Below are positions 1 through 14,681 of a DNA stretch of 64,000 nt, piece after piece (within the stretch, counting starts at the first letter, position 1; every line of letters begins with the position of its first letter). The DNA comes from Sterolibacterium sp. (GTDB taxonomy: Bacteria > Pseudomonadota > Gammaproteobacteria > Burkholderiales > Rhodocyclaceae), in assembly GCA_028713555.1 (NCBI GenBank), contig JAQTOA010000002.1, positions 124,001 to 188,000 of the forward strand, read 5' to 3'. The translations under genes were made by a program, and so were the position numbers. The notes under the pieces were generated by a model, which was not told the origin of the DNA, searched no databases, and worked only from the letters and a program-made list of their open reading frames with translations.

Positions 1-296
1 GCAGAGCGAGGAGTACGGCCGACATATCCCTGGCGCCGCAATGTGTCCAGCCCTTGCGCCAGTTGCAGGTGCCGCGGCAGGGGAACCATGAAATTGGCGA
101 GTTGCGCCACCATCTGTAGGCGTTCGTGAACCGGCCACTCGCGTTGCCCGGCATCAAAATTTGGCAGGCACATGAGGGCCTCCACCAGAGCATCGTCGTC
201 CAGCGCAGGCGGCAGGGCTTCGATGAACGGGTTGCCCTGATACTGAGGTATGCGCTGCTCGGAATATACGGCTTCGACGATGTGATTATTTTCCAT
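1..296 (-). CDS. TniB/TnsC-like transposition ATPase, N-terminal part (runs off window start)
   Basis: Manual minus-strand translation from ATG at 296: MENNHIVEAVYSEQRIPQYQGNPFIEALPPALDDDALVEAL...WPVHERLQMVAQLANFMVPLPRHLQLAQGLDTLRRQGYVGRTP; NP(L/F)IEALPP..., PLPRH...L and GYVGR.P pattern is typical of TniB/TnsC N-termini. Overlaps the preceding transposase ORF end by ~11 nt. Confidence 0.7.
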   Translation of the reverse strand, partial: MENNHIVEAVYSEQRIPQYQGNPFIEALPPALDDDALVEALMCLPNFDAGQREWPVHERLQMVAQLANFMVPLPRHLQLAQGLDTLRRQGYVGRTPRS

Positions 297-1227
297 TCAG
301 GATCTCCAGGTATTTTTGCCGACGACGGTCATCCTTTGCTGCTGCAGGAGGAGTGGCGGCGACGGATTCGTCTTCTGGCTGGGGCACCGACGCCTTGTTG
401 GGAATTAGCGGAATGACCTCAGCCGACTGCGCGCTCTTTGGCACTGGCCCGGGAATGCGGGCCTCACGTTGGCGCTGAAGACGCCGCTCCTCCAGCCGGT
501 CATCAGCGATGTCCTTCTTTCGTCCCTTACGCGACAAACCCTTCGACTGTTCTTTCGTCTGAGTACGCGCTTGTTTGGCGATAGGGTCGATAATCTTGTG
601 AAATTCAAACTTCTGTTGATAATCCAAGGAGCGACCTTCCTGCCGCAGCATCTCCCGTTGGTACTCGATGGCTTCAACCTCCTGGAAGGATAGGCCGCGA
701 TAGTCGGAGCACCGGTCCAGAAGACTGGCCACGAAGAATAAGGTTGGGTTTCGGTCGTCATGGATATAGATGGTGTCCACCAGACGTCTATCGTAAGAAA
801 CCGTTACCTTGAAGCTACCGCGGCCTGCGGCTACCATCCATCCGCGCTCCATGGCTTCCGCACAAGAGTAGAAGCAGTGATCCAGCCGGATACCTTCTCG
901 GGTTACCGTCGCTTTGTCCCTCGGAAGTAACGAGAAACGAACCCGCTCCTCCGAAATACGCGACAGGGTTCCGGCCCGTTCCCGAATCTCCAGGTTCCAG
1001 ATATCACGCGGAATCGGCTGAAGACCGCTCAAGCCATATTTCGCTGGCCAGATATAACCATCCCGGGGTGTCCGGTTGAAACGAATGATTGCGGCGAGCA
1101 TCATCATTCGCTCGATCTTGTCTTCCGACCATTGCCGTTTCCCTCGCATATACTGTCCCCAGGTAGCTATACACTTTCTACCGCGCCGAAACTTAGACGC
1201 GTGGGACAACTTAGGTAACATGAACAC
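286..1227 (-). pseudogene. TniA/TnsB/Mu-type transposase, C-terminal portion only (beta-barrel plus C-terminal tail; DDE core absent)
   Basis: 313 aa ORF; WSEDKIERMMMLAAIIRFNRTPRDGY...ERVRFSLLPRDKATVTREGIRLDHCFYS...VTVSYDRRLVDTIYIHDDRN resembles the Mu transposase C-terminal domain; no upstream catalytic domain in frame (TAG just upstream). Confidence 0.65.
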
Positions 1228-1314: not shown

Positions 1315-1542
1315 GTGTACAGTGCCGAGATGGATTGGAACCTCGAAGCCCGTCGTGTGCTGCGTGCTGAACTTGCGCGCCGTGACATAACCTACAAGCG
1401 CTTGGTGCAGCTGCTGGAGACCCAGGACGTCATCGAGACTGACCGCGCGATCGCAAACAAGCTGTCGAGGGGTACGTTTTCCTTCGCTTTCTTCCTGCAA
1501 TGCATGAAAGCTATTGGTGCCAGTACCATTAGTCTGGAGTAA
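1315..1542 (+). CDS. Small DUF6471-like protein
   Basis: 75 aa (GTG start; alternative ATG at 1330): WNLEARRVLRAELARRDITYKRLVQLLETQDVIETDRAIANKLSRGTFSFAFFLQCMKAIGASTISLE; recalls DUF6471 small proteins. Confidence 0.65.
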   Translation: MYSAEMDWNLEARRVLRAELARRDITYKRLVQLLETQDVIETDRAIANKLSRGTFSFAFFLQCMKAIGASTISLE

Positions 1543-1774: not shown

Positions 1775-2653
1775 TTAGGTGATACGTTTGGCAGCCCGCA
1801 GGACCGCTTCTATCACGATAGCCACGTCAGCCGCGGCCTTGCCTTTCACAGAGATACCCATTTCCATTGAATGCTCCAGTGAGGCGCTGGTCAGATTCGA
1901 AGATCCCACGTACGCGACATCAACATCACACAAGACTACCTTTGCATGAAACGTCTCTCGTCCATAGCCTTCAGGGCGGGGAATCGAGTAGTTATATACA
2001 TCCACGCGCTCACTCACCAACCAAGAGGCTACAGCGTCGTACCCAATTGGGTAGTCTGCGCGACTAGGATCCTCCAGACTACGGAGTATTAGTAACCTGG
2101 AAACTCCTTTGCCCACTTGGCTAAAAAGCTCCTTGAGCCATACTGCCCCTTTAACATCAAAGAAAGGTGTCATAACCACAACCCTGTGCCGAGCTGACTG
2201 AACCATGCTGTGAAAGGCGTGTTCGGTAGGTTCAACATCCGCAGTACGCCAACCGAGCTGAGCCAACTCATCTTCAAGAACACTGGGGCGTGGTGGCTTC
2301 GTTAAGACAATCTGTGCCGTTGTCGCGTCCTGGTGCGCATTGGTCAGGTAGTGGTCGATGGCTCGCAAGGCGAAGGATAGCCGACGGAAAACGGCGTGGC
2401 CGTGCCGCCGCGCCACATACCCTGCTTTTTCACTGTCCAGCAGCCCAAGCTGAGCCGCCTTGTCCAGCACATCCTTGGCGCCTCGTTCCTCGGTGACTCC
2501 GAGTTGGGCCATTGCTGTAATTGACTGAGCTGTTTGGTGAGAGCCTTCGGGTAGCTCCGGCCAAATAGCCAGTAGCGCCGCGGCCAGCCCTGCCTTACTG
2601 CTGAGGCCAGCTACGGCCGCTTTCTCAAAGGCAGTCAGCTCGCTGATGGGCAT
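1775..2653 (-). CDS. drmC: DISARM-associated phospholipase D-like protein DrmC
   Basis: 292 aa; HKD motif FHAKVVLCDVDVAYVGSSNLTSASLEHSMEMGI; overlaps drmB end by 19 nt. Confidence 0.75.
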   Translation of the reverse strand: MPISELTAFEKAAVAGLSSKAGLAAALLAIWPELPEGSHQTAQSITAMAQLGVTEERGAKDVLDKAAQLGLLDSEKAGYVARRHGHAVFRRLSFALRAIDHYLTNAHQDATTAQIVLTKPPRPSVLEDELAQLGWRTADVEPTEHAFHSMVQSARHRVVVMTPFFDVKGAVWLKELFSQVGKGVSRLLILRSLEDPSRADYPIGYDAVASWLVSERVDVYNYSIPRPEGYGRETFHAKVVLCDVDVAYVGSSNLTSASLEHSMEMGISVKGKAAADVAIVIEAVLRAAKRIT

Positions 2654-4866
2654 AGCGCATCCTGTGCGACATCAATATATCCTGCAATCGTAATCTCCCG
2701 TGTATCGAACCGTGGGTGTCCGCCGACGCTGCGCAAGACTGCGCGCGACAAAAGCTTGTTGCCCGCAATACAGGAGGTCTCCGGCACCATGAGACAATCC
2801 GGGCAAGCGCCACCTCTGTGGGTGCAGAGGGACCCGGTGCCGCATTGCGTAGCCTTGGGTGTGAGCATGGCCGTCAGCATCGAGATGCCGGCATTCCGCC
2901 ACATCGCAGAGAGGTTACCCAGGTCCATGGTTGTACCGCTGCGATAGACCACGAAGGCTAGGTCGGCCGGAAAGATATACTCCCCGAGCGAACCCAAGTC
3001 GAGGCCTGAGTATTCGGAAACGTGTTTCATAAGCAAATGCGAATAGCTGTGCAGCAAGGTGTACAAGTACAAATAGACGGGCGGTGTCGGACTCTCAGGA
3101 AGCTTATCAAGAAAGGGTCCCATGGGCGTCGCGCAAGTGAGCAATCCCGCTCCGAGCTTTTCGTCAGCGTTCAAGCTGAACATATATGAGCATCCCAGGC
3201 TCTGAAGCCACTTGAGCACGACCTCGGGCTTAAGTTTGACATAGAGTGCCTCGTTGCCTTGCTGGACAACGTAGATGGGATTCTTTGATGCGCCGTTGTG
3301 CTGAACCGGAGGGAAGAGGTTCAAGCGGACGGGCATATTTTGGCCGCGTTTGTCTCGCAGCACGGGGCCTGACTCCATGCGCGAATATCCGAAACTGAAC
3401 TTGCACAGGTCGAACTCCCGGATAAGCCCAAGGTCCGCCAGGCCCAGCCGGCCTAGCAAGCCACGCGCCTCGGCTTCCAAGGCTTCTGCGTCTGACTTCT
3501 TTTCCGGGCCCAGGTCCTCGTCGAGGCGCATCACGGAGACGTAGGGCTTCTTTCCATTGACGCGCGTCTCCACACCCAGTCGGGTAGTTTCCAGCGTCGC
3601 ATGCTCAATTGCCAACCGAAATGGGTCGAACTTGGAGGCGAACATGGATTGTCGGTATTGGAGACGATCTGTCAGCCCTGGGGGCAAGGATACCTTTGGC
3701 ACCAGAATAGCCCGGCGACGCAGGTCATCCAGGATGAGCTGCCGTTTGTCATATGCCTGGCCCAAAAGACCTTGCACCATCTCGCGCATTGCTGCGGAAA
3801 GGCCAGGCAGAGCCGTCTCGGTTGCCGCAATTTGTTCGACAGCCGCTTGGTAGGATGCCAAATCCTTTACGCAATCTTCGCGGCCCTTGCAGGCGGCAGC
3901 CACGTCCTCATCGCTAATTGCAGTAATGCCAAAACCATATCGGGTGGCAATGAAGTCCTTCAGTTCCTCCTCCCGGCCAGGGCGAAGCCTTGCCAGCAGG
4001 TCACGGCCACCATCCTTGAAATCAATGAACAGGTCCGAGCGCACGTAGTAGGCGTTGGACGCACGATAGGGCGTCACCTGCATGCGCGCGTGGGTGTACA
4101 AATCCGGCAAGCTCCTAGGGCCAAGCATCCGAAGAGTTTCTGGGTCGTTCTGCAGCCACTTTGCCGACAACGGCTTGCCACATTCAGCGCACTCGAAGAA
4201 CCAGTCGCCGATGGCAGCCTGTTTTCGGTTGAGCCGAAGGTCGTGGCTACCACAAACGCAGTTATCCTCTCGTTTCACAACCTTCAGGTCTGTGTCGCTC
4301 CAGTGCCACTGCCCAGGAAACGCAGGTTCCCAATGGCCAGACCAATGCACAAAAATCACATCGAGCTGTTCCCAGTCGCAAGTATCCTCGTGCTTTGAGT
4401 TCTTGCAACTGGTTGAACTCAAGGTAGGCAGGGCAGCATCCAATTCCTTGAGCGTGTCGTAGCCACGGAAAAGTCCACAGTTGCGGCACACAAACGTAAG
4501 CGGCGCCGGCGTGTACTCCATGTGCGACGGCCTGCAGAGGTACACTCGGTCCTGCCCGGGTGGCTGAAACCCTGAAAGAGTGCTATCCAGCAACTTCCTG
4601 TCGACACATTGGATGGGCAGAACCTGTGCCTTCGTAGCATCGTCATCCCGTGCCGTTACGGCGGCATCGTACCAGGCTCGGCCTAGTTCGTTAATGCGCT
4701 CGAATATCTGGTCTAGCGTTGGATCGGCCAAGTTCACCTGCTCGCCTACTGCTGATCGTGAAATGCAGGCTCCTACACCCCCTTCAAAGGTGAAGAAGCT
4801 CTCTGGCGCATACGAGGTCGCGAGCTGGTTACGCGAGCGGCTCATTGTTTTTGCTTTGGACATCAA
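2635..4866 (-). CDS. drmB: DISARM protein DrmB (DUF1998, zinc-binding)
   Basis: 743 aa; C-terminal CGTGSLCTHRGGACPDCLMVPETSC and internal zinc ribbons (CRNCG; CVCGSHDL...CAECG); HSYSHLLMKHVSEYSGLDLGSLGEYIF; immediately follows drmA. Confidence 0.8.
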   Translation of the reverse strand: MMSKAKTMSRSRNQLATSYAPESFFTFEGGVGACISRSAVGEQVNLADPTLDQIFERINELGRAWYDAAVTARDDDATKAQVLPIQCVDRKLLDSTLSGFQPPGQDRVYLCRPSHMEYTPAPLTFVCRNCGLFRGYDTLKELDAALPTLSSTSCKNSKHEDTCDWEQLDVIFVHWSGHWEPAFPGQWHWSDTDLKVVKREDNCVCGSHDLRLNRKQAAIGDWFFECAECGKPLSAKWLQNDPETLRMLGPRSLPDLYTHARMQVTPYRASNAYYVRSDLFIDFKDGGRDLLARLRPGREEELKDFIATRYGFGITAISDEDVAAACKGREDCVKDLASYQAAVEQIAATETALPGLSAAMREMVQGLLGQAYDKRQLILDDLRRRAILVPKVSLPPGLTDRLQYRQSMFASKFDPFRLAIEHATLETTRLGVETRVNGKKPYVSVMRLDEDLGPEKKSDAEALEAEARGLLGRLGLADLGLIREFDLCKFSFGYSRMESGPVLRDKRGQNMPVRLNLFPPVQHNGASKNPIYVVQQGNEALYVKLKPEVVLKWLQSLGCSYMFSLNADEKLGAGLLTCATPMGPFLDKLPESPTPPVYLYLYTLLHSYSHLLMKHVSEYSGLDLGSLGEYIFPADLAFVVYRSGTTMDLGNLSAMWRNAGISMLTAMLTPKATQCGTGSLCTHRGGACPDCLMVPETSCIAGNKLLSRAVLRSVGGHPRFDTREITIAGYIDVAQDALCPSAS

Positions 4867-4878
4867 ATTCCCCCAGGA

Positions 4879-7800
4879 CTATTCTTCGCTGGTGACGCTA
4901 GCGTCATCCACGTCGGCACCTGAACCGCGCCGGATAAACTGCATAACTCGGGCCGTGGCCTCAGGAGGCGAGCGCCGGTAGGCAGCATCGAATGCCGATT
5001 CGTAAATGACTCCTGGCTGGTCTACGTCGCGCAAGGACGTCATTGGCCGCAGGCTTGAATTGCGCGCTTCGAAGAACTTGGACAACCGAGTTCCATTTAC
5101 ATACCTGGGCATCGCCAGGTCCTGCTGGTAGTAGCCCAGTTCGCGTTTGAGCAATGCTCGGTAATACGCTGCACCTTCGGGCGCCGGCGAGATATTGAGA
5201 CCAAGCGCATTGGCCATAAATTGCTCCGTTTCATGCAAGGCGGCAGGCTTGGCGAGGAAATCGCGCACATCAGCTGCGTAGTCAAATGGCTGGCAGCCAC
5301 TTTTTTTGTCGTCATCAGCAGCGCAAAGAGTCTTAACCGCATTGACCCCGCAAACAAATTCCTGGAAGAAGCTCGGCATGACTCGAACAAGTGCTTTCTC
5401 TGCCCAGCGATCCACGGCAGCCGGCAAAATCATCCGTTCCAGGAACCGATGAAAGATGTCATGGACCTCCAAGATGAATCGGTCACGGTAACGCTGGGGG
5501 ATAGGCACCAGCAAAGAGAAGCCAACGTGGGAGCGACCAACACGCGATGATGCCTGGATGTATTCGGAGATTTCGGAAGGCATACCAGCAAAAAACATGG
5601 CATTGAACTCTTCCACGTCAACCCCGTGGGAGATGGCAGATGTGGCAATGACTGAGCGCAACGTTTCGTTTAGTTCCGGGAAGGGCTGCTCCGGCTGTAC
5701 CCGCGTCTCAGCGCGCCGCACGATGGCCTGAATCTCGGCGGCCGACACCGCCCCGGAGATGAGCTGGGAGAGCAGAGCCTGCTCGCCAAATCCATTAGCT
5801 CGGTGCAACCTGTCGAATTGCACTTTCTCCGTATCGATGACCTGGTCGCCACCCTTCTTATTGGTAACGTAGGTCAGGGAAATGCGATGCAGGTCCACCA
5901 AGGTGAGCAAGCTCGGGTAGTCAGCCTCTTGCAGCACCCGGACATGCTGCCCATTCAAAGGTCCAGCCGCGATCCAACGCACCAGTTCTGCCCGGGCCGT
6001 TTCCTGCTGTACCGGGTCCCCACTGCGCAACCGCTCGTAGAGGCCGGTAATCAACAGGTGATAATGCCCCAGCACTGCCGCCATGGCAACCGTATGTCGA
6101 TGACCATTCGTGAGGATTGCTCCGTACACTCGAGCCCAGTGACTACGCAGTTCGACATTCTCTTCGGGAATGGCTTTGCGCTCTACGTCTTCAGTCCCAC
6201 CGTCTGGCTGCAGGGGTCCCGCATAGAAAGATTGATAGAGGTCGGGTCCTGGGTACGGGAACTGCACGGTATGCCCACGCTGGTAAAGATTGCGCATCTG
6301 TCGCTGCGGTTCGCTCACGGTGGCGGATGCCGCAATGACCTTGATTTTTCGCCTGGTCGTGGAGTCGGGTTCGTACGCGAGCTGCCCGGCAAACTGTGGC
6401 GCTAGGTGGTCGAAGCTTGCCTCCAGGGCAGACTCAAAGAGGCCCGCGAACGTACCCAGCGACTCATCGAGCAGGTGCGCCTCATCCTGAATTAGGAGGG
6501 AGGGGAATGGGTCGAAGAAGCGCTTTTCGCCGGATGCAAAGCTGGGGAACAGGGCTCGGCGGCATTGACCATCAGGTTCGTCGTCCCAATCCTTGCGCTT
6601 TTGCGGGACAAACAGGCGATTTGTTGCTTTCTCAATGAGCGGCGCGAAGCCAAACATCCCGAAGAATTTGCGAATGGTGCCTTGCGACTGGCCAAGCGCT
6701 GCGAGCTTATCGACAGTGCCCAGCAGGACTGATGGAGCCAGGTCATAAATGTCCTCGTCGACCACGTAGAATGGTAGCGGCGTCGGCTCGGCAAATCGCG
6801 CATTCCAAGAGCACTTCCCCTTGGGTGCTGTGCAGTAGTGCCCCAGTGCGTTACCACCCGGCCCAGAAGACCTACGCATTGCCAGTTGCCCCTGGGTGTT
6901 GCAGAACGGACAGCCGTCCAGCTTAAGCCACCGTTCCTTATAGAGTTTGTACGGAGCTTTGTCCTGGTAGGTCGGCTCATTTGCGGGCGGCACATCCTTT
7001 TCGGTAGGGACGGAGGAGTAGCCTTCTTCCGTATGCCAGTTTGGCGTATTGGTACCGCCCACCCAGAAGCCCAACGAGAACGGCTCCCCGGGATGGCCTC
7101 GTTTATGCCGGATTTCTTCCGCGGCACCCAAGGCTGCGAACGTTCTTCTGGCTTGCTGGAGGGTCAGCAGACGCAGGGGATAGCGCATGAGCGCACTCAC
7201 CCCGTGATGCTTTCCACGTAGACGATCGAGGAATAGCACGAACACAAGCAAACCAAGGAATGCCTCGGACTTTCCGCCGCCAGTGGCGAAATACAGAAGT
7301 GTGACCGCATTGGCGTATTGGCCCGTTTCCGTCGTATAAAAATCATGAAATGCCGGAATACGTGTTGCAAATGCCGGGATGGATGCCAGGATGAACGCCA
7401 ACTGGAACATGTGCCACTCGTGATAGCCTTTCCGCTCGGCAACCTTGGCCATCGCGCTATTCAGGCAGGTCCATGCTTCGAAGGGAATACCAAGTTCCGA
7501 TTTCTGGGGGCCTGGCCCACTCCAGTGGGCGCGCGACTTATTTAGGATTTCAATGCCACGGCGAATGGCGCCCAGTTCGGCACGCCAAGCTGCCATGTCG
7601 AGCTGAAGCTTCTCGCGCTCCTTCACCTCCAGCTCTTTCGCATGGGGTCCTTCCAGCCCCTGACTGACCGGATAGCTGGCCACCTCGGTAAGCCAATCTT
7701 CATAGGCGGTAACCAGGGGGGCCAAACCGGGGAGGGAGTCTTCCTTTGCAAGCTTTGCGATATTTCGCTCCACACCACGGTCTATCGGCTTAATTCGGGG

Positions 7801-9087
7801 CAGCACGTAGCGTGGGGACCAGGTAGTGCTTAGCACGCGCGTCCCACTGGACTCTGTCATGACAACACCGCCATTGAAACCTAGTGCCGGGTAGGTCAGG
7901 TACTTGTTATAGCGATAGGAAGGCTTGACACGGTCCAGTCGCAGGAAGCAATGTGCATTTGCGGCCAGTGTGGCTGTCATCGCTACTTGGAAGAGAGAAG
8001 GCTCCATTTCCTTCCGGTTCTGTGCGGTCAGTGGCGGACTCCAGTTTTCCAGAGCGAGGTGGGCTGAAAGCCTACTCGGGTCCAGCGAATCAGGCACCGC
8101 TTGTACAACCCATCGCAAATCGATGGCAGGGACTACCACCGCCAGGCCGGAAGCGCGCACATCCGCGAGGTACTTGGCCCAGTTACGTATGTCCGACGGA
8201 CGAATCGGTCGCCCGTGCCGGTATCCCCACAGTTGCCCTCCGTAGGGCTCGTCGGCGCTTTTTGCCCACTTGTCCAGCTGCGCCTGTATGGCGGCGTTCA
8301 GCGCAAGGGTCGCCACAGCGGCATCTTTTTCAGCTGTTGCCGGCGTGAACGTGAAGCCAGGCATGTCCAACTCGAGCCGCAGCCACTTTGGAGGCGGCGC
8401 TATCGGGGCGGCCAGCGCGTCGGGCAAGTCGTCGCTGACGGGAATCTCGATAACCGGTGGTGCTTCACTATCGCTATCATCCTCTGGCACAACCTCGGCT
8501 TCGGCAGCTGCTTCGGCACCTACCTCCAGCTTGTCTCGATCCATGGTGTTGTCGAAGGGCAGCCCCAGGGCTCCATGCGATGCCTGACGCGCGGCCAGGC
8601 TACGTGCGGGCCAATCCGGGTGCATTTTGGAACCCCGGCCGGTCATTCCTAGCTCTGCTCTCAATGCTACAAGGGCAGCCCGTATGCGTTGCTTCAGATC
8701 CCGACGCGCATCACTTGTCAGGGGAAATTTCGGTTCCAGGAGGCCACCGCGTTTTATCTCGTCGGCGGTAGGCAGAATCCGGACATAGACTGCGCCACGA
8801 AGTTGCACAGCAATGGAATCTGCTTCCCGCTCCTTGACGATTTGGAAATCGAGGCCGTGTGCACTGATTTGGATGGGGTTGGACTCTTCGTCACCATTAC
8901 GCTCGCTGGCAGGCATGGGCACGATAAACTCGGTCATCAGTTCTGCACTGGGCTTTCCCCCATAGATGACCTTGTAGAACTCTTCTCGCCCGGCCAATCG
9001 TGCCGACAAGTTGTTAAGCAGGCTATCGACCACGGCCTCTTTGCACGCATCGTGAATTTTTCGCGGATTCTTGCTAAGAACAGCCAT
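4879..9087 (-). CDS. drmA: DISARM SF2 helicase DrmA
   Basis: 1402 aa; Walker A LYFATGGGKSEAFLG, DEAH box LLIQDEAHLLDE, motif III ASATVSEP, motif VI QASSRVGR; DUF1998-associated helicase architecture. Confidence 0.82.
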   Translation of the reverse strand: MAVLSKNPRKIHDACKEAVVDSLLNNLSARLAGREEFYKVIYGGKPSAELMTEFIVPMPASERNGDEESNPIQISAHGLDFQIVKEREADSIAVQLRGAVYVRILPTADEIKRGGLLEPKFPLTSDARRDLKQRIRAALVALRAELGMTGRGSKMHPDWPARSLAARQASHGALGLPFDNTMDRDKLEVGAEAAAEAEVVPEDDSDSEAPPVIEIPVSDDLPDALAAPIAPPPKWLRLELDMPGFTFTPATAEKDAAVATLALNAAIQAQLDKWAKSADEPYGGQLWGYRHGRPIRPSDIRNWAKYLADVRASGLAVVVPAIDLRWVVQAVPDSLDPSRLSAHLALENWSPPLTAQNRKEMEPSLFQVAMTATLAANAHCFLRLDRVKPSYRYNKYLTYPALGFNGGVVMTESSGTRVLSTTWSPRYVLPRIKPIDRGVERNIAKLAKEDSLPGLAPLVTAYEDWLTEVASYPVSQGLEGPHAKELEVKEREKLQLDMAAWRAELGAIRRGIEILNKSRAHWSGPGPQKSELGIPFEAWTCLNSAMAKVAERKGYHEWHMFQLAFILASIPAFATRIPAFHDFYTTETGQYANAVTLLYFATGGGKSEAFLGLLVFVLFLDRLRGKHHGVSALMRYPLRLLTLQQARRTFAALGAAEEIRHKRGHPGEPFSLGFWVGGTNTPNWHTEEGYSSVPTEKDVPPANEPTYQDKAPYKLYKERWLKLDGCPFCNTQGQLAMRRSSGPGGNALGHYCTAPKGKCSWNARFAEPTPLPFYVVDEDIYDLAPSVLLGTVDKLAALGQSQGTIRKFFGMFGFAPLIEKATNRLFVPQKRKDWDDEPDGQCRRALFPSFASGEKRFFDPFPSLLIQDEAHLLDESLGTFAGLFESALEASFDHLAPQFAGQLAYEPDSTTRRKIKVIAASATVSEPQRQMRNLYQRGHTVQFPYPGPDLYQSFYAGPLQPDGGTEDVERKAIPEENVELRSHWARVYGAILTNGHRHTVAMAAVLGHYHLLITGLYERLRSGDPVQQETARAELVRWIAAGPLNGQHVRVLQEADYPSLLTLVDLHRISLTYVTNKKGGDQVIDTEKVQFDRLHRANGFGEQALLSQLISGAVSAAEIQAIVRRAETRVQPEQPFPELNETLRSVIATSAISHGVDVEEFNAMFFAGMPSEISEYIQASSRVGRSHVGFSLLVPIPQRYRDRFILEVHDIFHRFLERMILPAAVDRWAEKALVRVMPSFFQEFVCGVNAVKTLCAADDDKKSGCQPFDYAADVRDFLAKPAALHETEQFMANALGLNISPAPEGAAYYRALLKRELGYYQQDLAMPRYVNGTRLSKFFEARNSSLRPMTSLRDVDQPGVIYESAFDAAYRRSPPEATARVMQFIRRGSGADVDDASVTSEE

Positions 9088-11869
9088 GCTTGGCTCCCTT
9101 CACTGCAGTGGTAGTTTGAGGAGGAATCACCTGTTCAACACGGAAAACACAATTCAAGGCTTCCTGCTGAAGATGGTGAATCGTTTCAAGTGGAATCTTG
9201 CGGTACGTGGCGGCGCTTTCCGGCTGAAACAGGATTTCGGCGTACTGTGCTGCCAACACACGCCCTAGATAATGGTTCAAACGCCGTGCATCCTTGATAA
9301 AGTTCCAGTAAGTCAGCGTGTCCTGCTCACTGATTTCCAAGGCAGTACAAAACAGTTTAAAAAACTTGGCATCTCGTGGCGCGTGTGGCGCGGTCTCGCC
9401 ATCCTTGAGCTGTATCCAGTAATAGATACGACCGAGGCGGCAGTTGTTGGCATCACTATCGATGGCCACCATCTTTGTGCGTATTGCCCTGGCGAGAGTA
9501 GTTCGCCTTGTCGCAACAAACAGAGCAGCACACCGGCGCTGCACATCATGGTGATACAGCTTCAGGAAAGTGCGTTGGGGCAGTGCGCTAGAGGCTACCC
9601 CGTTACTGTTAATTTGGAGCGCGTCTTCCACCTTGCCGTGAAGGGCATCGGACATCTCAAACACGTAATCGCCGGGTGCAATTTGACTAGCGGCTGCCCG
9701 TTTGAAAAATGGGTCTTCATCCGCTTCGTACCGATAGACCCAACCGGAAGCATAGGCGAACCCGCCGCCCTCAAGCTCGTACTTGTAGTAGTGCTGCTCG
9801 GTCGTGGGGTCTATGCCGGCTGTTTCATCAAGGTTGAACGTGAGCGACATTTCGCCGAGACGCTCTATCCGCAAGGGATTGGGGACTTCGGCTAACCGAG
9901 CTTCCAGCTCCTGCATCAAGAGCCCGATGCGACCACGATAGGGCTTAAAGGCGGCGATCCCTTTCATCCCAGTAAGCGTTTTTAGTGCGGTCTCCGCCTG
10001 CTTGTAGGCGATAAGCACCGCAGTGCCGTGAGGAATCGCCGGATGCGCCAGCAGAATTCGGAGCACATCAGGATTAATCCCGACAAACACATAGTGATGG
10101 TTGGCGTTGCGAGTACCCAGACTATTACGAAGTGCGCCTTGTACCTGAAAGTCGACGTGAGTCTCCGCTGCCGGCCAGGCTGCCCCAAGCTTGCGGCTCA
10201 AGTAACGATGAGCAAGCTGGATGTAGCGTTGCCCTGGCAATATGATGGAGAGTCCTACGGTGGAAGTTACTGCATACTTGCGAACTTCCGCCAGCATCCG
10301 AGCTGCCATTGGCGTTCCATCCGTCCAGTCGTCTATCAGCTTGCGGGCACGTATCACGGCAGAATCCACGTCGGCGCGTTCAGCGCCGAATGCCCCACTC
10401 GCCATTGCCGCCGCAATATCGAGTTCGACGGTCGTCCAGGTATTGCGCTGACTTGAAAAGTCCACAGCCCCCGCTTCAGCGGTCACCTCTGTCAGGTCAG
10501 TGTACCCTGCAGGCATATTCGATAAACGGAGGATGTAAAAGCAAGCCGCCATCAGTTCCCGATTGCCAGGCGAATCTTCATTCCCAAGTTTTTGCGCCAG
10601 CCGATAGAAGACGAGCGCAGCGGAAGAGGCGTCGCGGTCGACGATACTCACGCTGAATCGCGTATTGCTCTTTTGCTCCGGGCTCCAGTCTGCCGGTAGC
10701 GCATTGGACGATAGCAGGGGTTGCTCAGCTTCGGCGGCCCAGACTCTTGATTCAGCGGTTAGTCCAGCTTCGGATAGGCGGGCTCTCAAAACAAAGTACG
10801 TCCGTGGGTCATCCGTGACGATTACGCCACCCGTTTTTTCGTAGCCATGTTCCTGTGCATATTTCAGGAATTCAGGGATGCGGCTAATGGCTTTTTGTCG
10901 AACAACATCCGGCGTCGTGGTGGCATCGAGCAAGAACAGTTCAGGCTTTCCCTGCCCGCGCAACGCTTTATCGCCCAGTGCGCGGTTCCAGTTTTCCTTT
11001 CGTGACCCAGGGCGAACCACCATTAAGGAACCCGGCGCCTCACGCAGCGAATTCCATTCTGCGCTGACTTTTTTCCTCAAGTCGCGGCGGTGCGAAAGGT
11101 TGGTAACTTTGCGCATGGATCGTTCAAGTGGTGCCTCAACAACTGTCTTCCAAGCTTTTTCCTCATTGTCAAAAATGAAGGTTGGTATGATTTCAGAGAA
11201 AGAGGGATTTGGTAGTTGCGGATGGCGTATACGGATATCGTTCAAAGCAGCCAGCATAGCGAGGAACGAGTCTGATTTCGTATAGCTGCATACTTTTGAT
11301 GACAGGGAAGTGGCATCCCACAGCTGGCGATAGAGCTCGCTGTACTGCTCGCGGTTAACCAGAACCCCATTGAGAATACTTCTGGAGGAGTTTGTTCCAG
11401 GGAACAGTATAGCCCGCAGGCCCCGCAGGTCTGTGACGAAGTTTCTCTCGGCGCTGGCCAGTGCATGAAGCATGACCAGGGAAGGCATCCGCGCGGGCCA
11501 TACAAGGCAGAGAAAGAGCTTGGCCTTGTCCGCCGCCTCAAGCAGGGTATCAACAAGCGATAGTGCCCATGGTTGGGGAGAAACCAATTCATCCGGGTTG
11601 GCACGCGCAAAATACTCAAGTTGAGCCGCTCCAGCTCTTAGGCCACTCCAGGGTTTCTCTGGTGCCGCCGGCGTGCTAGAACTCGTTGTGGCCTGCGTGA
11701 CGGTCGAGGGGGTAACGGCGGACTTTACGGAGCGCTGCGGCCGATTTCCCACAGGTTTGGACAAATATTTCTTGACCAGTTCAGCTGCTTTATCTTTGGC
11801 CCTGTCCCGGTCAGCGACACTATTGGCGTCTCTGTCAAACCTGTTCTTCTTTTTTATGAATGTTGGCAT
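9074..11869 (-). CDS. Large DISARM-locus protein of unknown function, possibly DrmE-like by position
   Basis: 931 aa, immediately upstream of drmA with 14-nt overlap; no Walker A or other clear catalytic motif seen by eye; C-terminus ...TYWNFIKDARRLNHYLGRVLAAQYAEILFQPESAATYRKIPLETIHHLQQEALNCVFRVEQVIPPQ. Confidence 0.55.
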   Translation of the reverse strand: MPTFIKKKNRFDRDANSVADRDRAKDKAAELVKKYLSKPVGNRPQRSVKSAVTPSTVTQATTSSSTPAAPEKPWSGLRAGAAQLEYFARANPDELVSPQPWALSLVDTLLEAADKAKLFLCLVWPARMPSLVMLHALASAERNFVTDLRGLRAILFPGTNSSRSILNGVLVNREQYSELYRQLWDATSLSSKVCSYTKSDSFLAMLAALNDIRIRHPQLPNPSFSEIIPTFIFDNEEKAWKTVVEAPLERSMRKVTNLSHRRDLRKKVSAEWNSLREAPGSLMVVRPGSRKENWNRALGDKALRGQGKPELFLLDATTTPDVVRQKAISRIPEFLKYAQEHGYEKTGGVIVTDDPRTYFVLRARLSEAGLTAESRVWAAEAEQPLLSSNALPADWSPEQKSNTRFSVSIVDRDASSAALVFYRLAQKLGNEDSPGNRELMAACFYILRLSNMPAGYTDLTEVTAEAGAVDFSSQRNTWTTVELDIAAAMASGAFGAERADVDSAVIRARKLIDDWTDGTPMAARMLAEVRKYAVTSTVGLSIILPGQRYIQLAHRYLSRKLGAAWPAAETHVDFQVQGALRNSLGTRNANHHYVFVGINPDVLRILLAHPAIPHGTAVLIAYKQAETALKTLTGMKGIAAFKPYRGRIGLLMQELEARLAEVPNPLRIERLGEMSLTFNLDETAGIDPTTEQHYYKYELEGGGFAYASGWVYRYEADEDPFFKRAAASQIAPGDYVFEMSDALHGKVEDALQINSNGVASSALPQRTFLKLYHHDVQRRCAALFVATRRTTLARAIRTKMVAIDSDANNCRLGRIYYWIQLKDGETAPHAPRDAKFFKLFCTALEISEQDTLTYWNFIKDARRLNHYLGRVLAAQYAEILFQPESAATYRKIPLETIHHLQQEALNCVFRVEQVIPPQTTTAVKGAKHGCS

Positions 11870-11948
11870 TGTCGAATTTGGCTTTTCTACGCAAGGAACC
11901 GTTTAAATACTGGCTGATGGCTGCTATGTCGCTAGCTGATATAGCCAC
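11835..11948 (-). CDS. Possible 37-aa small ORF upstream of/overlapping the 931-aa gene
   Basis: Manual translation from GTG at 11948: MAISASDIAAISQYLNGSLRRKAKFDNANIHKKEEQV*; overlaps the 931-aa start in another frame. Confidence 0.25.
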   Translation of the reverse strand: MAISASDIAAISQYLNGSLRRKAKFDNANIHKKEEQV

Positions 11949-11960
11949 GGTTCTGCCTGA

Positions 11961-13679
11961 TTAGAGGGAAAACGCCTTTCTGACGGCTTCGTCAATAGAT
12001 TGACATCGCGGCATCTCTTCCATCAAACGAACTGGGTCAGGCAGCAGTAAGTGGTCGAGTTCGAAGATGGAAACGTTGACGGCCCCACAAACACATCGGA
12101 ACAACCGGTCTATGGTTTCGGATTGAAGTACTTGAGCAAGCTGGGTGGGAGTGAACCTCACGGTATCTCCAACTTGCTCAAGAAAGACAACATGGTTCTC
12201 CCCCACCACTCCGCCAAACTCCCGAATAAGTTCTGCTGGAACGGCAGCGCCAATAAGCCGCCGCTGCTGGTCCGTGGAGGTGACGCGTTGTAGAGCAACG
12301 CATGGCTTACGAATCACCGAGGCGTGGTTTGTTCTCCCTATGTTGACATATTTCCCTAAACCCCCGGGAGGTCGTTGTCGCCCCAACTGGAAATCCCCCT
12401 CTTGTCCAATATCGCTTGACCACACCAAGGGAAAAACAGAACCAGCTTCAAGCTTTGGAAGCTTTGCGTAAGTTTTACGGTCGTCTCTATTCCAAACGAA
12501 TGCTCCGACCCTGGCCACATAGCCATAATCGGCTAACCGAAATACTGACCCATTAACTGCGCGGAGGATCGCAGCGTCACCAGAATCGCGGGGAACAGGC
12601 CACGCTACCCCTGTTTTTGGCAGACGACATTTACCAATGCTAGAGAACTCGGCGTCCTTCGTCGAAGCAAAGACCAGTGTTTCCGTTGGTTGCCTTCTCT
12701 TCATCTGACGACGAAAAACCGCAATAGCTGTTTCTTGGTCTACGCCTACAAAGGCTCCCAGAGCCCCAATAATGTCAAGCTGGGAGACTTCGGCATGTGC
12801 CCTCAGGTACCCTCGTAATAGCGAGTAATACTGACCTGAAAGGTAACTGGTAGGTGTCAGGAGGCCCGCAGTTCCACCCGGTTTGAGCAAGTCAAGCGCC
12901 AGCTTGAAGAACAAGGTATATAAATTTGGTTGGCGGGTAATAACCTCTTGGTATTTTTTTCGATATTTGGTTACTTCTTCGCTGGGCATCTTCCGGTAAG
13001 GCGGGTTGCAAATTACAACATCGACCGCTCCCTTATGCTGCCGCATGCTCGCTAGGGCATTGCTGGTTGTTACTTCAAATTCCGGTTCAAATCCTGCGCT
13101 GGTAATTTCCTTGTAGAGAACCATACGCAAAAATTCCTTGGACATGCGCGCCAGGCAGGAATCGATATCGTTCCCCACTAGATGTCCTGCAATGTGCCTC
13201 AGAATTTCTTCCGAGGTCAGGTTCTTTTCCCGAAGGGCAGCGGCCATACGGGATGCAACTGGTGCAAGAAAAGCGGCCCCGCCACTCGCTGGGTCCGCCC
13301 AAGTGTGCTTGGTGAGGCTTGCCCCGTGGGCAATGAGGTTGTCAATGAGTCGCGCAGAAAGTGCAGGTGGTGTAAAAAATAATGCCTGCTCTTTTTGTAA
13401 ATCCTTGCCAACCCAATGAGCGTAGGCAGATGAAAGCCAAAAGGCGGCAGTGAGGATGTCTAGCCCTGATAGCCAGGCAGAAAATTCGACAACCAGAGAA
13501 TTCTTGAGTAAGGCTTTTGTGGACCGTGGACTACGTCTAACGAGTGCCGGGTAGGCTTGTTGCTGCCAAAGATGCAATACAGCATTTGCGAGATGTCTCG
13601 CTTCTTCAGCTTTACCGTGGCTCAACGGCTGCAGCTTGCGAATGTATTGCTGTATTTCTTGTCTTCCCTTGGGTAGCAC
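11961..13679 (-). CDS. N6-adenine-type DNA methyltransferase (Eco57I-like) of DISARM-like operon
   Basis: 572 aa; motif IV VVICNPPYRK (NPPY codons at 12997-13008), motif I-like WADPASGGAAFLAPV; GTG start; first gene of the leftward operon. Confidence 0.75.
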   Translation of the reverse strand: MLPKGRQEIQQYIRKLQPLSHGKAEEARHLANAVLHLWQQQAYPALVRRSPRSTKALLKNSLVVEFSAWLSGLDILTAAFWLSSAYAHWVGKDLQKEQALFFTPPALSARLIDNLIAHGASLTKHTWADPASGGAAFLAPVASRMAAALREKNLTSEEILRHIAGHLVGNDIDSCLARMSKEFLRMVLYKEITSAGFEPEFEVTTSNALASMRQHKGAVDVVICNPPYRKMPSEEVTKYRKKYQEVITRQPNLYTLFFKLALDLLKPGGTAGLLTPTSYLSGQYYSLLRGYLRAHAEVSQLDIIGALGAFVGVDQETAIAVFRRQMKRRQPTETLVFASTKDAEFSSIGKCRLPKTGVAWPVPRDSGDAAILRAVNGSVFRLADYGYVARVGAFVWNRDDRKTYAKLPKLEAGSVFPLVWSSDIGQEGDFQLGRQRPPGGLGKYVNIGRTNHASVIRKPCVALQRVTSTDQQRRLIGAAVPAELIREFGGVVGENHVVFLEQVGDTVRFTPTQLAQVLQSETIDRLFRCVCGAVNVSIFELDHLLLPDPVRLMEEMPRCQSIDEAVRKAFSL

Positions 13680-14036
13680 CTAGTATCCTTTTGATGACAA
13701 TATCTTGATTCTAGCCGTGATTGGAGTTACTTGACATGCCTTGGCATCTCGAAGAGCCTTGTGTAGGTACAAGATAAGATACCCTCCACGTGGCTCATAG
13801 GGTGAGCCACTGGTGACTATTGCTGATTTGTTGATGGGGCAGCATGCGGGCTATTAACGCCGCCGGCGTGGCCTATTTTTTGGGGACGATAATCCCGGTC
13901 ACTACAATCTCTTTATGCCGAATAGGTGTTCAGGGCAAAACTCGGGATTCACTGATAAGGCCAAACTGTAGGCCAAACTCGTGATATCTGTGCCAAGAAA
14001 GACAGGCATTCGTTATGGATGTGACAGATGTAACTG

Positions 14037-14363: not shown

Positions 14364-14681
14364 CCCAGGTCAGATTTATTTTTATGTCCACGATGTCAGG
14401 TCAGATTTATTTATCATTTGGGCTGATTTTGGCCCAATAAACCTGTATTTCAGACTTCTGGCCCGGGCAGAATGGAGGGCGGCAGTATTCCTGGTGTCGG
14501 CCTGTACATGCCATACGAGTTGTAAATGAAATCTGACCTGGGCGCTAAGCCCCATGGTTGAGCCAATTGCCAGCCGCTACTTATCTCAAACGCATTAGTC
14601 GACTGGGGCTGAGTTGGTCAGTCAGGTCAGGTTTATTATTCAGGTCAGATTTTATTTTAACGGGTCAGGTTTCATTTATCA
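14364..14681. repeat. Cluster of six GGTCAG(A/G)TTTATT-type repeats; outer 14-bp inverted repeat CCCAGGTCAGATTT (14364-14377) / AAATCTGACCTGGG (14529-14542)
   Basis: Copies read at 14367-14383, 14398-14412, 14524-14541 (inverted), 14623-14640, 14641-14659 and 14662-14681. Confidence 0.75.

What the first reader, a model, noticed from the sequence alone, without database searches (positions are those of the whole stretch)
1775..13679. DISARM-like anti-phage operon that mixes hallmarks of both DISARM classes
Seen: five minus-strand genes in tight order: NPPY-type MTase (572 aa), 931-aa unknown, DrmA-like DEAH helicase, DrmB-like DUF1998 protein, DrmC-like PLD. Three of the four junctions are overlapping or nearly so. 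Established: class 1 DISARM has an adenine MTase (DrmMI) plus the SNF2 helicase DrmD; class 2 has a cytosine MTase (DrmMII) plus DrmE. Here a short adenine-type MTase occurs with no SNF2 helicase, and a large unknown protein sits next to drmA where DrmE would be expected. Inference: a hybrid or third DISARM architecture.
Basis: partly seen in the sequence, partly recalled or inferred. Interest (0 to 1): 0.85.

Follow-up and report, generated by a model that had tools for sequence, protein, structure and literature searches.

The report
DISARM-like operon with adenine methylase
Five neighbouring genes form a probable anti-phage defence system: a previously unnamed, deep branch of the known DISARM family that pairs an adenine DNA methylase with a very divergent, probably inactive helicase-like protein related to DISARM's DrmE.

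Summary
The five minus-strand genes are real, and the same gene set (MTase, 931-aa protein "X", DrmA, DrmB, usually DrmC) recurs in about 80 genomes and 7 plasmids across four phyla. DrmA, DrmB and DrmC match DISARM models, but far below curated cut-offs. X matches no Pfam, NCBIfam or PADLOC model. Profile-profile comparison nevertheless shows that X is a remote DrmE homologue: 98% probability, score 126 against 11-24 for controls, collinear over about 690 columns. AlphaFold (pLDDT 87) with Foldseek gives X an SF2-helicase-like core; no copy has a Walker A motif, and there is a short intein/Hint-like beta-domain. DrmA forms its own fully supported clade, on the same side as most DrmE-linked DrmAs and away from class 1. 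X and DrmA distances correlate at r=0.97. So this is not a random hybrid: it is a DrmE-type (class-2-like) DISARM lineage in which a short N6-adenine MTase stands where class 2 has a C5-cytosine MTase. It meets neither published class definition; a 2025 survey mentions only "uncharacterized DISARM-like" classes. Best reading: a new variant of a known kind. Antiphage function is inferred, not shown.

The parts
11961..13679 (-). M: N6-adenine-type DNA methyltransferase, 572 aa, NPPY motif; probable self-marking enzyme
   Evidence: Pfam Eco57I 3.3e-15 and N6_Mtase 3.3e-10; PADLOC MTase_II PDLC03338 2.4e-141; solved relative annotated as adenine-specific MTase 7lni, E 5.9e-11; NPPY/NPPF/NPPW-type motif in 77 of 77 homologues
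9074..11869 (-). X: 931-aa remote DrmE homologue; SF2-helicase-like fold without Walker A, Hint-like beta-domain about residues 695-740, helical C-terminus
   Evidence: No family model hit; hhalign to DrmE family 98.1%, E 6.4e-14 with controls at background; AlphaFold2 pLDDT 87.4; Foldseek SF2 helicases, intein/hedgehog matches of the C-terminal part
4879..9087 (-). DrmA-like SF2 (YprA-family) helicase, 1402 aa, GGGKSE and DEAH
   Evidence: NCBIfam DISARM_DrmAS 337 bits, cut-off 950; PADLOC DrmA 6.9e-85; solved DrmA 7s9v 3.2e-47; Walker A in 88 of 88 homologues
2635..4866 (-). DrmB-like protein (separate DUF1998-type module), 743 aa, four-cysteine cluster CGTGSLCTHRGGACPDC
   Evidence: PADLOC DrmB 6.8e-16; NCBIfam DrmB_fam 41.8 bits, cut-off 240; cysteines read in the translation
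1775..2653 (-). DrmC-like phospholipase-D-fold nuclease, 292 aa, one HxK(x4)D motif (HAKVVLCD) followed by GSSN
   Evidence: Pfam PLDc_2 8.5e-12; NCBIfam DISARM_DrmC_I 66.8 bits, cut-off 133; motif in the translation

Best explanation
A DISARM-family antiphage operon of an undescribed DrmE-type clade. Proposed mechanism: (1) the NPPY methyltransferase puts N6-methyladenine on a host motif as the self mark; (2) DrmA and DrmB form a helicase complex that loads on ends or single-stranded parts of incoming unmarked DNA and translocates, blocking its use; (3) X, a remote DrmE with a dead SF2-helicase fold plus a Hint-like beta-domain, is a non-catalytic DNA-binding platform that gates or loads DrmAB; (4) the PLD nuclease DrmC, when present, cuts the trapped DNA. 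Shown here: the gene set, the homologies, the predicted fold of X, the loss of its P-loop, and co-inheritance. Inferred from known DISARM: steps 1, 2 and 4. Inferred from fold and co-evolution alone: step 3.
For: Conserved gene set in 88 loci; DISARM homology of DrmA, DrmB, DrmC; X-DrmE homology with controls; fold of X and missing Walker A in 78 of 78; adenine-type MTase; DrmA clade joined with DrmE-linked DrmAs, apart from class 1; X-DrmA r=0.97, X-DrmB r=0.96; operon often on plasmids near other defence-type genes. DrmAB biochemistry from PMC9142583.
Against: No experiment. All DISARM matches lie below curated cut-offs. Trees are quick, unrooted and have long branches. Hint-like match is weak (no E<0.001). 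DrmC is absent from about a quarter of operons, so a nuclease step cannot be essential everywhere. Methylated base and motif are not known.
Confidence: 0.72

Rival explanations
1. An ordinary class 2 DISARM whose cytosine methylase was merely swapped for a passing type II adenine methylase; nothing mechanistically distinct.
For: X is a DrmE homologue; MTase co-divergence is lower (r 0.75) and its place varies: upstream in 71 loci, downstream of the core in 8; a Streptomyces DrmE-linked locus has an N6/N4-type MTase beside it.
Against: The same MTase family accompanies this clade in every locus with complete flanks except a degraded copy; the DrmA stem is long (1.9-2.2 changes per column) and no catalogued DrmE model sees X.
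Confidence: 0.35
2. X is not DrmE but an independent pseudo-helicase that happens to sit in the same place.
For: Almost no pairwise identity; best PDB structure matches are generic SF2 helicases with low TM-scores; DrmE_fam HMM does not see X.
Against: Collinear profile match over about 690 columns including the non-helicase C-terminal region, well above all controls; no match to the DrmA helicases (scores 22.6-24.2).
Confidence: 0.08
3. The operon is a remnant or a non-defence modification/repair system.
For: It sits beside a Tn7-like transposition module whose TnsB-like gene is shortened; no activity has been measured.
Against: All five frames are open, catalytic motifs are kept across 77-88 homologues, and the set persists in many unrelated hosts and plasmids.
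Confidence: 0.07

Closest known systems
Class 2 (type II) DISARM: DrmA, DrmB, DrmC, DrmE, DrmMII
   Same: Same backbone order E-A-B-C; X is a DrmE homologue; helicase and DUF1998-type module in separate genes; PLD nuclease
   Different: N6-adenine-type MTase instead of C5 DrmMII; X invisible to DrmE models; DrmA forms a separate deep clade
Class 1 (type I) DISARM: DrmA, DrmB, DrmC, DrmD, DrmMI
   Same: DrmA, DrmB and DrmC homologues and an adenine-type MTase
   Different: No DrmD SNF2 helicase; short 572-aa MTase that is not DrmMI; class 1 systems lack DrmE
ARMADA, BRIGADE, TALON, Druantia, Dpd (YprA-family systems, PMC12458937)
   Same: YprA-family helicase at the core
   Different: Those helicases carry the DUF1998 module in the same chain and lie in other branches or gene settings; no BrxHII-like helicase, no 7-deazaguanine genes here
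PADLOC MTase_II PDLC03338 and the adenine-specific MTase of 7lni/8cxz (CamA, name from own knowledge)
   Same: PDLC03338 covers residues 61-570 of the MTase; 7lni is a solved 578-aa adenine-specific relative of the core
   Different: CamA is an orphan methylase (own knowledge), not part of a DISARM operon

Membership tests
DISARM (core) | DrmA-type YprA-family helicase | tested here: met
   PADLOC DrmA 6.9e-85, DISARM_DrmAS 337 bits (below equivalog cut-off 950), solved DrmA 3.2e-47
DISARM (core) | Separate DrmB gene with DUF1998-type zinc module next to drmA | tested here: met
   PADLOC DrmB 6.8e-16 and DrmB_fam 42 bits (below cut-off 240); four-cysteine cluster; adjacent gene
DISARM (core) | DrmC PLD nuclease | tested here: met
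   DISARM_DrmC_I 67 bits (below cut-off 133), PLDc_2, HxK(x4)D; absent from 22 of 79 complete-order loci, some of them cut by contig ends
DISARM (core) | Methylation-linked restriction of phage | not testable with these tools
   Needs plaque assays and methylome data
Class 1 (type I) DISARM | DrmD SNF2-like helicase | tested here: not met
   No such gene in the operon or the flanks read
Class 1 (type I) DISARM | DrmMI methyltransferase | tested here: not met
   Best hit MTase_II PDLC03338; no DrmMI model in the best 25; positive control L009 MTase hits DrmMI at 1103 bits
Class 1 (type I) DISARM | DrmE absent (prohibited) | tested here: not met
   X is a remote DrmE homologue; definition in PMC9252829
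Class 2 (type II) DISARM | DrmE | tested here: inconclusive
   Homology by profile-profile comparison is strong (98.1%, E 6.4e-14) but NCBIfam and PADLOC scans of X give no DrmE hit
Class 2 (type II) DISARM | DrmMII cytosine methyltransferase | tested here: not met
   MTase is Eco57I/N6_Mtase with NPPY; positive control L090 hits DrmMII at 459 bits
ARMADA | BrxHII-like helicase plus PglX-like MTase, and DUF1998 module in the helicase chain | tested here: not met
   No such helicase in the operon; the DUF1998-type module is a separate gene (definition in PMC12458937)

The most novel reading that the evidence does not exclude
A mechanistically distinct third class of DISARM: self-marking by N6-adenine methylation, with a pseudo-helicase bearing a non-splicing Hint-like domain as the sensor that reads DNA state and licenses DrmAB. 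This would also give a fold and a role for DrmE, for which I found none described.
Probability: 0.3. Interest if true: 0.72.

Novelty: new variant of a known kind. Interest (0 to 1): 0.52.

Why it matters
It adds a widespread, uncatalogued clade to DISARM that the published two-class definition would miss or misfile, and it gives a first structural hypothesis for DrmE: a P-loop-less SF2 helicase fold with a Hint-like domain that co-evolves tightly with DrmAB. Because the same DrmE-DrmA-DrmB backbone occurs with C5 and with N6 methylases, comparing the two would test whether DISARM reads a specific methyl mark or DNA ends.

Tried and rejected
A single-sequence scan of genome contigs with X found nothing, and viral contigs with the DrmA alignment found nothing; genome contigs with the DrmA alignment worked. 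No match of DrmA in the phage collection. NCBIfam DrmE_fam found no member in 274 genomes of the window's class, so DrmE sequences were taken from plasmids. Idea that X is a dead copy of DrmA: rejected, hhalign to DrmA at control level. Idea that another effector regularly replaces DrmC: no recurrent downstream gene seen. The Halarchaeum protein upstream of drmA (L092, 910 aa) was first taken for DrmE, reads as GHKL-ATPase-like, and was used only as a negative control. The proteins of L090 and L099 in the same position are not convincingly related to X (2% and 0.3%) and were left out of the key DrmE profile (A7); they are in A5, which still gave 94%.

Full report
OBSERVATION. MTase and X are 91 bp apart, X and DrmA overlap by 14 bp, DrmA and DrmB are 12 bp apart, DrmB and DrmC overlap by 19 bp. 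HMM scans: DrmA hits DISARM_DrmAS at 337 bits (cut-off 950) and PADLOC DrmA at 6.9e-85; DrmB hits DrmB_fam at 42 bits (cut-off 240) and PADLOC DrmB at 6.8e-16; DrmC hits DISARM_DrmC_I at 67 bits (cut-off 133); the MTase hits Eco57I, N6_Mtase and PADLOC MTase_II PDLC03338 (2.4e-141); X hits nothing. So DrmA, DrmB and DrmC are DISARM homologues, but all lie below the curated cut-offs.

CONSERVATION. Plasmid pPNAP03 of Polaromonas naphthalenivorans has the same five genes in the same order, with identities of 42% (MTase), 24% (X), 44% (DrmA), 41% (DrmB) and 35% (DrmC, 196 aligned residues). Plasmids of Rhizobium, Afipia, Sphingomonas, Mesorhizobium and Sinorhizobium repeat the set, some with the MTase moved. 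A scan of one genome per GTDB species with the DrmA alignment gave 80 loci. An ORF and HMM walk over these, the plasmid loci and the window gave, for 88 loci (L002 and L080 are the same plasmid): MXABC 50, MXAB 21, XABCM 7, XABM 1, and 9 partial; eight of the partial ones are cut by contig ends, and one, L043 on a Cupriavidus plasmid, looks degraded. Hosts are mostly Pseudomonadota, with Acidobacteriota, Thermodesulfobacteriota and Ignavibacteriota members. It is rare: besides the window's own genome, 1 of 368 sampled genomes of the same class has X.

WHAT X IS. Eleven X proteins (the window's and ten diverse homologues) hit no family model above chance in Pfam, PADLOC or NCBIfam, and the 66-sequence profile has no credible PDB sequence match. 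DrmE-type DISARM loci on plasmids (Halobacterium, Halorhabdus, Haloplanus, Streptomyces, Allocoleopsis, Rubrobacter) carry a protein of 826-872 aa upstream of drmA, in most cases directly; two are named DrmE family protein by the annotators, and three others hit DrmE_fam at 24-67 bits. hhalign of X against these six gives 98.1%, E 6.4e-14, score 126.5; with a relaxed alignment setting it is collinear over 693 columns (X profile 80-924 to DrmE 19-833). Against the two named DrmE alone it gives 97.0%, E 1.2e-10, score 94. Controls: reversed DrmE profile 24.1, 20 column shuffles 11-16, DrmA of this clade 22.6, class 1 DrmA 24.2, DrmD 22.4, DrmMI 19.1, DrmB 18.0, GHKL-like protein 13.9. These are single-comparison E-values. 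X is therefore a very divergent member of the DrmE superfamily; the C-terminal half (profile positions 527-887) aligns most surely.

FOLD OF X. AlphaFold2 with 66 sequences gives pLDDT 87.4 and pTM 0.83. Foldseek against the PDB returns SF2-type helicases at the top (RIG-I, Hef, Chd1, RecQL5; probability near 1 but low TM-scores). A Walker A pattern is absent in 78 of 78 X proteins; where the first core strand ends, a Trp-Pro pair is almost invariant (W in 65, P in 66 of 66). The C-terminal part (residues 665-931), folded apart (pLDDT 82.8), has no match at E<0.001, but its best match is an intein (5bkh, probability 0.99, rmsd 2.1 over 52 columns), and other inteins and the hedgehog autoprocessing domain follow. 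Sequence profiles of X and of DrmE each weakly hit inteins over the corresponding region (E 0.036 and 0.021). The Hint-like assignment is suggestive, not proven, and splicing residues were not tested.

PHYLOGENY AND CO-EVOLUTION. DrmA of this clade is monophyletic (100%) on a long stem, and lies with the haloarchaeal, Streptomyces and Rubrobacter DrmE-linked DrmAs on one side of a 100% split, with class 1 DISARM on the other. These are quick IQ-TREE runs, unrooted and with long branches, so the grouping is provisional. Over 44 complete operons the pairwise distances of X and DrmA correlate at 0.97, X and DrmB at 0.96, DrmC and DrmA at 0.79, MTase and DrmA at 0.75; no permutation reached these. 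X, DrmA and DrmB look inherited as a unit; MTase and DrmC are looser. X is among the fastest evolving (median identity 19%, against 39% for DrmA).

CLASSIFICATION. The definitions used by PADLOC are: type I = DrmA, B, C, D and DrmMI, with DrmE prohibited; type II = DrmA, B, C, E and DrmMII (PMC9252829). This system has A, B, C, a DrmE homologue, no DrmD, and an MTase that is neither DrmMI nor DrmMII (controls: a class 1 MTase hits DrmMI at 1103 bits, a class 2 MTase hits DrmMII at 459 bits). Bell et al. 2025 (PMC12458937) mention uncharacterized DISARM-like classes but their main text does not mention DrmE or describe this set; their supplements were not read. No paper found names it; the library lacks most subscription papers, including the original DISARM paper.

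MECHANISM. In studied DISARM, DrmAB is a helicase complex stimulated by unmethylated DNA with 5' overhangs, and DrmC is dispensable (PMC9142583). By analogy the adenine MTase marks self, DrmAB attacks unmarked ends, and DrmC cuts when present. X lacks an ATP-site motif but keeps the helicase shape and tracks DrmAB, which fits a DNA-binding gate or loader; this step rests on fold and co-evolution only.

Noticed in passing
window 286-1227 (-) and L116:12352-16296 (-): The operon lies beside a Tn7/Tn5053-like module: a shortened Mu-transposase-C (TnsB-like) gene, a TniB/TnsC-like AAA protein, a TniQ protein and a 344-aa protein with a weak DUF4096 match. The operon may have been transposon cargo.
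   Followed up: partly
window 1330-1542 (+): Small 70-aa DUF6471 protein between the operon and the transposon genes.
   Followed up: partly
window 13790-13810: Inverted repeat GTGGCTCA-CCCTA-TGAGCCAC about 110 bp upstream of the MTase start; possible operator. Conservation not tested.
   Followed up: no
window about 14380-14660: Several near-copies of an AAATCTGACCTG-like word upstream of the operon, before the sigma-factor gene at 14614.
   Followed up: no
L005 and L009: One Sphingomonas parapaucimobilis strain (YK209) carries this system on one plasmid and a class 1 DISARM on another, the latter lying within a type I-E CRISPR-Cas locus.
   Followed up: partly
L092 6465-15933: Haloarchaeal DISARM-like locus with a GHKL-ATPase-like 910-aa protein in the DrmE position, plus cytosine and Eco57I/TaqI-type methylases.
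   Followed up: partly
L100 3916-10977 and L097 4032-10737: DrmA-DrmB pairs preceded by a NERD-domain protein (Rhodococcus) or by a UvrD helicase (Tsukamurella): further unnamed DISARM-like layouts.
   Followed up: no
L094 3991-19597: Streptomyces DrmE-linked locus with an N6/N4-type methylase and, next to it, TnsA-like and transposase genes, as beside the window operon.
   Followed up: no
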